This document shows positions 3,464-5,727 of a DNA stretch of 41,612 nucleotides, one piece after another. Below the pieces are notes generated by a model. That model was not told the DNA's origin, searched no databases, and saw only the letters and a list, made by a program, of their open reading frames with translations. The stretch covers positions 1 to 41,612 of the forward strand of contig PFXG01000045.1 of assembly GCA_002791545.1 (NCBI GenBank), given 5' to 3'. Numbering within the stretch: position 1 is the stretch's first letter; every line of letters starts with the position of its first letter. A program made the translations under genes and the position numbers. The stretch comes from Zetaproteobacteria bacterium CG_4_9_14_3_um_filter_49_83. Its GTDB lineage: Bacteria; Pseudomonadota; Zetaproteobacteria; Mariprofundales; Mariprofundaceae.

Positions 3464-3547
3464 TCATTCGATCATGAGTGGCATCTTATAGATTGTGTCT
3501 AAGTTCGCGGATTTTCTCATACTCCCTCCTTCCATCATGACAGGCAT
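3464..3547 (-). CDS. Possible 27-residue small ORF
   Basis: An ATG at 3547 follows a very good ribosome site (GGGAGGTGA, 6 nt spacing), and an in-frame ATG further in also follows GGAGGGAG. The ORF ends at a TGA at 3464-3466. Its start lies at the edge of the repeat block left of the PIN cassette. It may be a real small protein, a leader for the lipoprotein gene, or the decayed 5' end of a longer gene. Only the ribosome sites support it. Confidence 0.3.
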   Translation of the reverse strand: MPVMMEGGSMRKSANLDTIYKMPLMIE

Positions 3548-3548
3548 A

Positions 3549-3678
3549 TCTGTCACCTCCCAAAGAACATTAAAACAACAATAGGCGTATTCGCGTCGCA
3601 TGGTAATTTGCTAACAGTTGCTGATACAAGGCATCATATTAAAGCCATAAAAGAGCCTGAACCTCAGACAATTCGTAC
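3549..3678. repeat. Flanking direct repeat, left of the PIN cassette
   Basis: Positions 3649-3678 are identical over 30 bp to 5698-5727, which holds the last codons and stop of the M48 protease gene. Similarity continues leftward for about another 100 bp at lower identity (matching segments AATAGGCG, GCATGG-AATTT and CCCAAAGAA). The block starts 10 nt past the PIN gene stop. It also belongs to the dispersed repeat family seen at 133-262 and 12.9-13.0 kb. Confidence 0.8.
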
Positions 3679-3688
3679 AACTCGCAGT

Positions 3689-4225
3689 TTACGCCAATAA
3701 CCGTCTGTTCGCCGTGACTACTGGAATGCCCTGCCCATGAAAATCACCATCATCTGTAATCAACTTCAAGCCCTTCCTATGACACAAAGCAGTGATAACC
3801 TGGTCATTGAAATCAGCATCTCCAGCTGCATATTCGGCAATTAAAGCATCTATATCTAACGTCTCAAAGCCATTTTCCACACGCGAGCAATGATTCAACA
3901 CTTGTTTGACATCGGCAGCAATATCGCGGGAAATCGGCTTAAAATCGGCGCTATTTCGAAATAGTTTGAAATCACCGTGCGGCTTGCCCATTACATTCCA
4001 TTTCAGACGGGCATAGGTGTTAATGAATTCGGAAACAATCAGCACATCAATATAAATACGGCTTTTTGCGGCGAGAATGTTTGCGAGCGCTTGAGAGTAG
4101 ATTGCCACTCTCCGGTCTCCCGGTTTTTGCGGTCCATAGACAAGCAGCCAGATATTGGTATCCAAAAACAACTCATCTTCAGCCTCGAAGCTATAATCAG
4201 TTACTGCCACAGGGTTATGCTTCAT
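3689..4225 (-). CDS. PIN-domain ribonuclease-like protein
   Basis: A PIN domain. The first strand L-F-L-D-T-N carries Asp22, V-S-E-F carries Glu66, D-F-N-D carries Asp138/Asp141, and I-T-D-D-G-D-F carries Asp158 to Asp161. All four acidic positions needed to bind Mg or Mn are therefore present, and nuclease activity is plausible. With the ATG at 4225 the protein has 178 residues. That start has GGGAG 9 nt upstream and overlaps the end of the DUF4325 gene by 11 nt; the ATG at 4234 is an alternative. PIN proteins are best known as VapC toxins of about 130-140 residues, and this one is longer with an insert around residues 75-125. No VapB-type antitoxin lies beside it. The gene is coupled to DUF4325 and GHKL genes, so control by a partner switch is inferred. 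Confidence 0.85.
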   Translation of the reverse strand: MKHNPVAVTDYSFEAEDELFLDTNIWLLVYGPQKPGDRRVAIYSQALANILAAKSRIYIDVLIVSEFINTYARLKWNVMGKPHGDFKLFRNSADFKPISRDIAADVKQVLNHCSRVENGFETLDIDALIAEYAAGDADFNDQVITALCHRKGLKLITDDGDFHGQGIPVVTANRRLLA

Positions 4226-4580
4226 CGTTTTCATCTCCCAATGACTCTCGAACAGCCTGATCAAATTTCTGAGGGTCTCTGAAGTATTGCTTTGCTGTTT
4301 CAACCACCCGCTTTAACAGAGCCAGATCATCCGGCTGCATGTCCTGCACATTTAATAAGGCGCGGATTTGCACTTCACTGAATTCGCCATACAACTGACC
4401 AACGGCTGAATTCAGAAATGCAGATGTTAACGTCGAAATATTGTAAAATGAGAGAGACACGCGCCGACTATCTTTAAGTGCAACTGAGAGGCGTTCATAC
4501 ACCTTCTGCCCATCGCCGGAGGCAACACACAAAGGACTTCCCACTATCTCGAATATAGATATCGTCATCGCTTTTTCCAC
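4215..4580 (-). CDS. STAS-like domain protein (DUF4325)
   Basis: A 121-residue protein matching the DUF4325 pattern: a strand-rich start, then S-L-S-F-Y-N-I-S-T-L-T-S-A-F-L-N-S-A, the hallmark segment of STAS-like partners of GHKL ATPases, at about 42-59. The C-terminal 40 residues are charged and helical. The GTG at 4580 is chosen because GAGGTGAT lies 6 nt upstream of it; an ATG at 4568 is the alternative. The ribosome site sits on the stop of the upstream ATPase gene (11-nt gap), and the end overlaps the PIN start, so all three are likely translated from one mRNA. By analogy with SpoIIAA/SpoIIAB it could bind or be phosphorylated by the ATPase. No conserved phospho-Ser can be assigned with confidence. 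Confidence 0.8.
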   Translation of the reverse strand: MEKAMTISIFEIVGSPLCVASGDGQKVYERLSVALKDSRRVSLSFYNISTLTSAFLNSAVGQLYGEFSEVQIRALLNVQDMQPDDLALLKRVVETAKQYFRDPQKFDQAVRESLGDENDEA

Positions 4581-4591
4581 TTTTTATCACC

Positions 4592-5464
4592 TCAAAATAT
4601 GTCCGTAGCGCTAGCCTCGGTAGTCAGCATATATGTATTCGTATCAGCCGTATTTATTTCAATGGTTACGACGGTGCCTGGAAAGGAATGGATAAGTAGG
4701 CCGGTGGTAGTTATCTTATTTTCTCTCCGCCAATAACCAGCATCCGACACAATCTGAATGCACCCTCCGTTTAAATCAATGAACTCTCCAAGTAATTTAA
4801 GCCCCAGCCCACCCGGTACGGGGCCTCGTTTGGTTGTATTGCGCCCTTCAGTCGACCAGCAAATCGCATCCTCGGCCGAAAGGTCAAGTCCCGCATTCTC
4901 TTTAATATTTGCCCGCATGCCGATACCTAAATCAGCCACAGAGAAATCAAGGCAGTGCCGAGCCGGAAAAAACTGCCCACAACTAAAAATTCCCAATTCA
5001 GAACGTGAATGCAGTACTGCATTGCTAAAAATCTCAAAAATACTTTCGCGAAATTTTTTAAGCAGTCCTGAAGACATGGTTGGAATCTCATCCCTGTGAA
5101 TCAACTCATTTTCAATATAATCGGCAAAGTAACGGTCGTCCTTCGCATCGAACCTTTGGTAGGGAATCGTTGTTCCCCAGCGATCAGGTATCTTTTCACG
5201 GCCATAGTGACTGAGGAATCCGTTTTTCGAGAGAATGTTGTCAACACCGGGACGAGTATTAAGTAATCTAACCGTATTCACGTTCTCACCCATGCGGTAC
5301 AGGAGTGCACCGAATGCCGAGCACATATCGGCATCGAACCACGAAACCGTGCTCATGTCGATATCGATATCTTCAAAATAGGTGTTTTCGGTTTTTTCTG
5401 CCAAGCCCACTAATGCCTGAAACCCCGCCTGATCATGTCGAATCTCAGGCAATATCAGCCTCAC
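4592..5464 (-). CDS. GHKL-family ATP-binding protein with STAS-like N-terminal region
   Basis: 290 residues. The C-terminal part is a histidine-kinase-type ATP-binding fold. It has an N-box E-I-F-S-N-A-V (Glu144, Asn148), a G1 box A-D-L-G-I-G-M (Asp178, Gly180, Gly182), and a G2 box G-G-L-G-L-K-L-L (Gly218-Gly221). There is no dimerisation His domain and no membrane segment, so it is not a classical sensor kinase. Residues 30-88 (I-D-I-D-M-S-T-V-S-W-F-D-A-D, then R-L-L-N and a K-N-G-F-L turn) look like a STAS fold fused to the ATPase. The GTG start at 5464 overlaps the stop of a 48-residue upstream ORF by 4 nt. It heads the DUF4325-PIN pair and probably controls it. Confidence 0.8.
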   Translation of the reverse strand: MRLILPEIRHDQAGFQALVGLAEKTENTYFEDIDIDMSTVSWFDADMCSAFGALLYRMGENVNTVRLLNTRPGVDNILSKNGFLSHYGREKIPDRWGTTIPYQRFDAKDDRYFADYIENELIHRDEIPTMSSGLLKKFRESIFEIFSNAVLHSRSELGIFSCGQFFPARHCLDFSVADLGIGMRANIKENAGLDLSAEDAICWSTEGRNTTKRGPVPGGLGLKLLGEFIDLNGGCIQIVSDAGYWRRENKITTTGLLIHSFPGTVVTIEINTADTNTYMLTTEASATDIF

Positions 5465-5607
5465 ACCATCACCTCGACCATTGTCATCGTATCGTTACCG
5501 AAGATATCGGCCAATTTTTCTGGAATTCTGGAAAAGTGATACTTCCCCCACCTCCTAAGCTTGACCGAAGTCTGAATTTTAAGGTTAGTACTGTTATTTA
5601 AAATCAT
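5461..5607 (-). CDS. Possible 48-residue ORF leading the GHKL-STAS-PIN cassette
   Basis: Starts at an ATG at 5607 after GAGGGG and ends at a TGA that overlaps the GHKL start codon by 4 nt, a typical coupled junction. The last 20 residues (E-K-L-A-D-I-F-G-N-D-T ending V-E-V-M-V) read like a real protein end. The first 15 codons lie inside the dispersed repeat, so the ORF could be the truncated remnant of a longer first gene of the cassette. I recognise no family. Confidence 0.4.
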   Translation of the reverse strand: MILNNSTNLKIQTSVKLRRWGKYHFSRIPEKLADIFGNDTMTMVEVMV

Positions 5608-5672
5608 CCCCTCGCCCCCAAAGAATACATATTACAACGATAGGCGCTTTCACGCAGCATGGCAATTTACTG
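5562..5672. repeat. Dispersed intergenic repeat, copy 3
   Basis: Contains CTGTTATTTAAAATCATCCC near 5591-5610 followed by CGATAGGCGCTTT and GCATGGCAATTT, the same order of segments as at 133-262 and 12.93-13.03 kb. It continues into the flanking repeat that ends at 5727. Confidence 0.7.
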
Positions 5673-5727
5673 ACGCGAGATCACATCTTGCGACAACAAA
5701 AGAGCCTGAACCTCAGACAATTCGTAC
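5598..5727. repeat. Flanking direct repeat, right of the PIN cassette
   Basis: Partner of 3549-3678. The exact 30-bp core at 5698-5727 spans the last four codons and TGA of the M48 protease gene plus its first downstream bases. The unit from one core to the next is 2049 bp and holds the whole GHKL-STAS-PIN cassette. Confidence 0.8.

What the first reader, a model, noticed from the sequence alone, without database searches (positions are those of the whole stretch)
3689..5464. GHKL ATPase, STAS-like protein and PIN nuclease in one coupled cassette
Seen: three minus-strand genes with an 11-nt gap and an 11-nt overlap. The ATPase has complete N, G1 and G2 boxes, and a STAS-like N-terminal region is inferred. 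A DUF4325 STAS-like protein follows, then a PIN protein with all four acidic residues. Known: GHKL kinases and STAS proteins form partner switches (SpoIIAB/SpoIIAA type), and PIN domains are metal-dependent ribonucleases. Inference: the ATPase and STAS proteins switch the nuclease on or off, giving a stress or defence device whose control is not a VapB antitoxin. I know of no description of this exact combination.
Basis: partly seen in the sequence, partly recalled or inferred. Interest (0 to 1): 0.8.

Follow-up and report, generated by a model that had tools for sequence, protein, structure and literature searches.

The report
Kinase-switched RNase toxin cassette (VapKSC)
Three adjacent genes encode a toxin that probably cuts RNA, a protein that holds it silent, and a kinase that releases it on DNA damage or phage attack; this is a new copy of the vapKSC system published in June 2026, with traces showing that it once sat inside a restriction-modification operon.

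Summary
In detail: window 3689-5464(-) carries a STAS+GHKL kinase, a DUF4325 STAS-like protein and a PIN protein with the stated 11-nt gap and 11-nt overlap. The set is conserved and co-evolving. 80 of 86 loci with enough flank keep the order, from many phyla, prophages and a plasmid, and all catalytic residues are near-invariant. There the VapS antitoxin binds the VapC PIN toxin (PDB 9Z7O) and VapK is proposed to release it by phosphorylating VapS when ssDNA appears. The window's S53 and D22 align exactly with VapS S48 and VapC D28. I file it as a new member of a known kind. What I did not find in that paper's main text: about a quarter of the genome loci have vapKSC beside or nested between mod and res of one type III restriction-modification family, usually with a 4-nt mod/vapK overlap. 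The window retains the last 22 codons of such a mod gene before vapK, although the RM system is gone. A long direct repeat of the neighbouring gene's 3' end flanks the cassette; eight other loci also have flanking repeats. It looks like an escaped toxin-antitoxin cargo of a variable mod-res slot.

The parts
4592..5464 (-). vapK: kinase, N-terminal STAS-like domain (about residues 1-100) plus C-terminal GHKL ATPase/kinase domain
   Evidence: N-box E144/N148/H152 invariant in 82 homologues; SpoIIAB top fold match for the orthologue L070
4215..4580 (-). vapS: DUF4325 STAS-like antitoxin with phospho-site S53 and a C-terminal helix
   Evidence: Pfam DUF4325 6.8e-14; 9Z7O chain A 'VapS' E 7.4e-14 with S53 aligned to S48; S/T at 53 in 94/94, partly by construction of the search
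3689..4225 (-). vapC: PIN-domain RNase toxin; start ATG at 4225, 11 nt inside vapS
   Evidence: Pfam PIN 4.4e-9; 9Z7O chain C 'VapC' E 6e-13 by profile, D22 aligned to catalytic D28; acids conserved
5461..5607 (-). 48-codon ORF ending in a fossil of the C-terminus of a type III Mod methyltransferase (homologous part 5464-5529); its stop codon overlaps the vapK start by 4 nt (GTGA)
   Evidence: tblastn 61-78% identity over 18-23 aa with Mod of L025-L032, L037, L050, L058, L072, L080; 28 hits in real flanks, 0 in reversed controls
5597..5727 (-). upstream copy of the flanking direct repeat: 3' end and downstream region of the M48 peptidase gene, including a terminator-like hairpin at 5704-5718
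3559..3678 (-). downstream copy of the same repeat, starting 10 nt after the vapC stop; 72% identical over about 111 nt, 30 nt exact, hairpin at 3655-3669; only two copies in the genome

Best explanation
The cassette is a vapKSC operon. In unstressed cells VapS (DUF4325) binds the VapC PIN RNase, its STAS face gripping the toxin and its C-terminal helix reaching towards the active site, so VapC is silent. Single-stranded DNA from DNA damage, phage infection or restriction activates VapK. [quoted passage not shown] VapS lets go, and VapC cleaves RNA (probably tRNA or rRNA) and stops growth or phage production. Shown here: gene order, coupling, conservation, catalytic residues, fold and alignment to the solved complex. 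Shown by others in Escherichia: toxicity, neutralisation, complex structure, phosphomimic release, phage protection. Inferred for this host: kinase activity, ssDNA trigger, RNA target. [quoted passage not shown]
For: Order K-S-C conserved in 79 of 86 loci with enough flank, 80 once L060 is re-read. The VapK-VapS gap is mostly 9-11 nt, and in 76 of 88 loci VapC starts in the same overlapping frame. Pairwise distances of the three proteins correlate at r 0.85-0.94, permutation maximum 0.33. S53 = VapS S48 and D22 = VapC D28 by alignment to 9Z7O chains. Orthologue model: mean pLDDT 90, top matches SpoIIAB and VapC-type PIN. No N-terminal HTH on the kinase and no wHTH on the STAS protein, as in VapK/VapS rather than CapK/CapS. 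Biology of the homologue. Mod fossil and RM nesting.
Against: No assay in this organism. VapC identity to the Escherichia toxin is low: it is found only with a profile, not by single-sequence search. The GHKL domain scores below Pfam's cut-off. VapK F54, the proposed ssDNA contact, could not be placed with certainty, and even the authors could not test VapK directly. S/T at position 53 is partly guaranteed by the search pattern. The domain arrangement in the predicted triple chain is uncertain (pTM 0.60).
Confidence: 0.88

Rival explanations
1. The cassette is a working part of restriction biology: like PrrC beside EcoprrI, VapC is a suicide RNase guarding a type III RM system, and the signal is restriction failure or RM loss rather than general DNA damage.
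For: 21 of 80 genome loci have this mod or res family beside vapKSC, 15 have both, 14 share a 4-nt mod/vapK overlap. Mod and Res distances follow VapS/VapC distances (Mantel p 0.0005-0.01, n 9-10). The mod-res slot carries other cargo or none elsewhere.
Against: Most loci, phage and plasmid copies and the window have no RM partner of this family, so the cassette must be stable without it. The Escherichia operon protects when cloned alone. Only small numbers enter the correlations.
Confidence: 0.25
2. CapKS-type transcription switch: the kinase and STAS pair regulates transcription, and the PIN gene is merely the regulated neighbour.
For: Same kinase-STAS chemistry; CapS is a DNA-binding repressor controlled by CapK.
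Against: The window STAS protein is 121 aa with no wHTH and aligns nearly end to end with VapS, which binds VapC; the kinase lacks the CapK HTH.
Confidence: 0.04
3. Decaying passenger genes without function in this host.
For: No relative of the ATPase in 36 other genomes of the same family, the RM partner is gone, and the cassette sits between duplicated gene ends.
Against: All three ORFs are intact, every catalytic residue is kept, the coupling is kept and even the mod-derived start region is preserved.
Confidence: 0.05

Closest known systems
vapKSC of Escherichia sp. E4736 (Chambers et al., EMBO J 2026, PMC13373217; VapS-VapC structure PDB 9Z7O)
   Same: Gene order, domain make-up, phospho-acceptor serine, catalytic aspartate, lack of HTH domains, no VapB.
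   Different: Distant in sequence; this subfamily is tied to type III RM mod/res operons; the window copy carries a mod-tail fossil and flanking repeats.
CapK-CapS regulators of CBASS, Bub and other immune operons (same paper)
   Same: STAS+GHKL kinase phosphorylating a STAS protein; often beside RM operons.
   Different: CapS is a wHTH repressor and CapK has an HTH; here neither is present and the STAS protein is an antitoxin.
SpoIIAB-SpoIIAA / RsbW / RsbT-RsbS partner switches
   Same: GHKL serine kinase and STAS substrate; SpoIIAB is the top fold match.
   Different: The output there is a sigma factor or stressosome, here a nuclease; here the kinase carries its own STAS domain.
VapBC toxin-antitoxin
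   Same: PIN RNase toxin of VapC type.
   Different: No VapB; the antitoxin is a STAS protein that in the homologue leaves Mg2+ in the active site.
PrrC-EcoprrI and other RM-linked suicide RNases
   Same: RNase toxin inside a restriction-modification operon.
   Different: Unrelated proteins and sensor; the link here is to type III mod/res and only in part of the family.

Membership tests
vapKSC | Three-gene operon kinase - STAS protein - PIN nuclease | tested here: met
vapKSC | VapK with STAS and GHKL domains, no N-terminal HTH | tested here: met
   290 aa starting directly in the STAS-like region; weak STAS profile hits, GHKL fold, motif conservation
[quoted passage not shown]
   S53 aligns to S48; 121 aa; C-terminal helices in the orthologue model
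vapKSC | VapC-like PIN toxin with catalytic Asp (D28) | tested here: met
   D22 aligns to D28; profile E 6e-13
vapKSC | VapS binds and neutralises VapC; VapC is toxic | not testable with these tools
   shown for the Escherichia homologue only
vapKSC | VapK activated by ssDNA through a conserved aromatic (F54; CapK W68) | tested here: inconclusive
   W42 is aromatic in 82/82 but I could not show that it is the F54 position; the relative L114 has Arg there
CapKS | CapS wHTH repressor, CapK HTH, downstream immune operon | tested here: not met
   no HTH in either protein; the downstream gene is the PIN toxin
VapBC | VapB antitoxin gene next to vapC | tested here: not met
   the partner gene is DUF4325; no vapB-like gene among the adjacent genes examined
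Type III restriction-modification system | mod and res genes | tested here: not met
   only the last ~22 codons of mod remain at 5464-5529; no res match
PADLOC-listed defence system (2023 version) | match to a curated model | tested here: not met
   no significant match

The most novel reading that the evidence does not exclude
The mod-res junction of one type III RM family is a cargo slot for toxin-antitoxin modules: empty, KilA-N-like, other small genes, or vapKSC. The cargo starts on the mod stop codon. There vapKSC is functionally wired to restriction: breaks made by restriction, or loss of the RM system, feed ssDNA to VapK and release VapC. The cassette can leave the slot with the mod tail as its start region and settle elsewhere with a long duplication of the target gene's end, as in this window.
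Probability: 0.35. Interest if true: 0.62.

Novelty: new member of a known kind. Interest (0 to 1): 0.45.

Why it matters
It shows that the newly described kinase-controlled RNase toxin is widespread: 261 places in 84,980 species genomes with one sequence pattern, plus prophages and a plasmid. It moves between phyla and is often built into restriction operons. If restriction and VapKSC are wired together, the locus is a two-step defence in which DNA cleavage itself arms a suicide RNase, and that can be tested with one cloned operon.

Tried and rejected
L060 first looked like a natural VapK-VapS fusion; translation showed a chance long frame in GC-rich DNA, so that claim was dropped. One-alignment modelling of all three proteins first misplaced the PIN rows (A6); it was replaced by A7. 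PADLOC, NCBIfam and PHROG names gave nothing useful for the three proteins. The idea that the flanking repeat is a genome-wide repeat was rejected: only two copies in the genome. An E. coli copy of the related L114 operon was sought and not found. Literature searches on DUF4325 and partner switching missed the key paper; it was found through the PDB hit.

Full report
Observation. On the minus strand of window 3689-5464 lie three genes: a 290-aa ATPase (4592-5464), a 121-aa DUF4325 STAS-like protein (4215-4580) and a 178-aa PIN protein (3689-4225, ATG at 4225). The 11-nt gap and the 11-nt overlap are as described. Pfam gives DUF4325 (6.8e-14) and PIN (4.4e-9); the GHKL domain is below Pfam's cut-off (0.0077), so it was established otherwise.

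Conservation. tblastn found the same trio in a Deinococcus gobiensis plasmid and in an unannotated gut phage scaffold, and a relative of the ATPase in Streptococcus phage Javan172; the phage locus also has an unannotated PIN frame. A profile of the DUF4325 protein hit 261 places in 84,980 species genomes, of which 80 loci were fetched. Of 86 loci with enough flank, 79 have ATPase, DUF4325 and PIN adjacent on one strand; L060, first miscounted, makes 80. The ATPase-DUF4325 gap is mostly 9-11 nt, and in 76 of 88 loci the PIN gene starts in the same frame, commonly 10 nt before the end of the DUF4325 stop codon. Distance matrices of the three proteins correlate at 0.94, 0.90 and 0.85, far above permutations. 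Catalytic positions are near-invariant: E144, N148 and H152 of the kinase 82/82; D22 and E66 of the PIN protein 87/87; S or T at 53 of DUF4325 94/94, the last partly imposed by the search pattern. In the tree the window sits with three Nitrosomonas cassettes (98/93), although 36 genomes of its own family that were searched lack the ATPase, which points to horizontal transfer.

Identity. A profile search of the PDB matched entry 9Z7O: chain A 'Escherichia VapS' to DUF4325 (E 2.7e-22) and chain C 'Escherichia VapC' to the PIN protein (E 6e-13). That led to Chambers et al., EMBO J, June 2026 (PMC13373217). They named the operon vapKSC, found 289 instances, showed that VapC is toxic unless VapS is co-expressed, solved the 2:2 VapS-VapC complex, showed that S48E in VapS abolishes binding and rescue, and found about 2-log protection against phage Bas42 that needs VapC D28, VapS S48 and VapK F54. 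In the alignments the window S53 falls on S48 and D22 on D28 (the first after subtracting an 18-residue tag, which I infer from a chain of 134 residues and a protein that the paper numbers to 116). An AlphaFold2 model of an orthologous chain (L070, the three proteins joined by reading two stop codons through; pLDDT 90, pTM 0.60) matches SpoIIAB and VapC-type PIN structures.

Mechanism. VapS keeps VapC silent; VapK, activated by ssDNA, phosphorylates VapS on S53; VapC is released and cleaves RNA. For this host only the anatomy is shown. The trigger and kinase step are inferred; direct ssDNA-stimulated phosphorylation has been shown for CapK, not for VapK.

Context beyond the paper. Of the genes next to vapKSC, the commonest kind is restriction-modification: of 104 neighbours, 12 have an N6_N4 methylase domain and 12 a ResIII domain. 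21 of 80 loci carry a mod or res of one type III family, 15 both, and in 14 the mod stop overlaps the vapK start by 4 nt. Mod and Res distances follow VapS/VapC distances. The paper's main text does not contain the words 'type III' or 'methyltransferase'; its supplement could not be read. In the window the RM genes are gone, but the 66 nt before vapK still encode RIPEKLADIFGNDTMTMVEVMV, the C-terminus of that Mod family, with the GTGA overlap intact. Reversed control sequences gave no such match. Elsewhere the same mod-res junction is empty (G084, 5-nt gap), holds a protein that looks like KilA-N (G221, same family as the window; domain judged by eye), or other small genes. So the junction behaves as a cargo slot, and the mod tail supplies the start region of whatever follows.

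Mobility. The cassette is flanked by a direct repeat of the M48 gene's 3' end (72% over about 111 nt, 30 nt exact, with a terminator-like hairpin in each copy). Across 79 loci, nine including the window have flanking repeats above the 99th percentile of mismatched pairs, where about one is expected; several are ends of the adjacent gene (mod in L031, L032 and L062; res in L070). This resembles insertion with long target duplication, proposed for RM systems by Nobusato et al. 2000 and cited in PMC3031569. It is an inference from sequence; no empty site was available for the window.

Limits. Loci were found with one motif, 80 of 261 were read, and many are metagenome bins where split genes may be assembly errors. 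Whether this genome is among the 289 of the paper is unknown.

Noticed in passing
L026, L027, L028, L072 and others; L142 (G221); L143 (G084); L144, L146, L154: The mod-res junction of one type III RM family is a variable slot: empty, KilA-N-like, a small membrane protein, a two-gene set (the first resembles a DUF4065/Panacea antitoxin by eye, not tested) or vapKSC.
   Followed up: partly
window 3559-3678 and 5597-5727; L031, L032, L034, L043, L045, L053, L062, L070: Direct repeats of 30-270 nt flank the cassette, several of them copies of the adjacent gene's end, suggesting insertion with long target duplication.
   Followed up: partly
L004 6140-6670 (Streptococcus phage Javan172): The PIN gene of a prophage vapKSC lies between the DUF4325 gene and the integrase and is not annotated in the record.
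   Followed up: yes
L107, L116, L123 (and probably L109, L115, L117, L118, L120, L124, L131): Single proteins carrying both HATPase and DUF4325 domains, with no PIN gene recognised nearby; domains confirmed by Pfam for L107, L116 and L123 only.
   Followed up: partly
L108, L110, L113, L122, L125, L127: DUF4325 genes, most next to a kinase-like gene, followed by other short genes without a Pfam match above cut-off; possible other effectors.
   Followed up: partly
window 3500-3535(-): After the downstream repeat a short stretch (REYEKIREL) resembles the C-terminus of the M48 peptidase (REYKKLTKAI), perhaps the remnant of a second copy.
   Followed up: no
L088 7980-9919: Permuted order: DUF4325, PIN, then ATPase.
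   Followed up: no
L084, L091, L098, L101, L104, L048, L065, L076, L099: Other vapKSC copies lie beside SNF2/PLD helicases, DUF1156 proteins or type ISP restriction enzymes (domains checked in L084, L091, L048 and L065; the rest by similarity clusters).
   Followed up: partly
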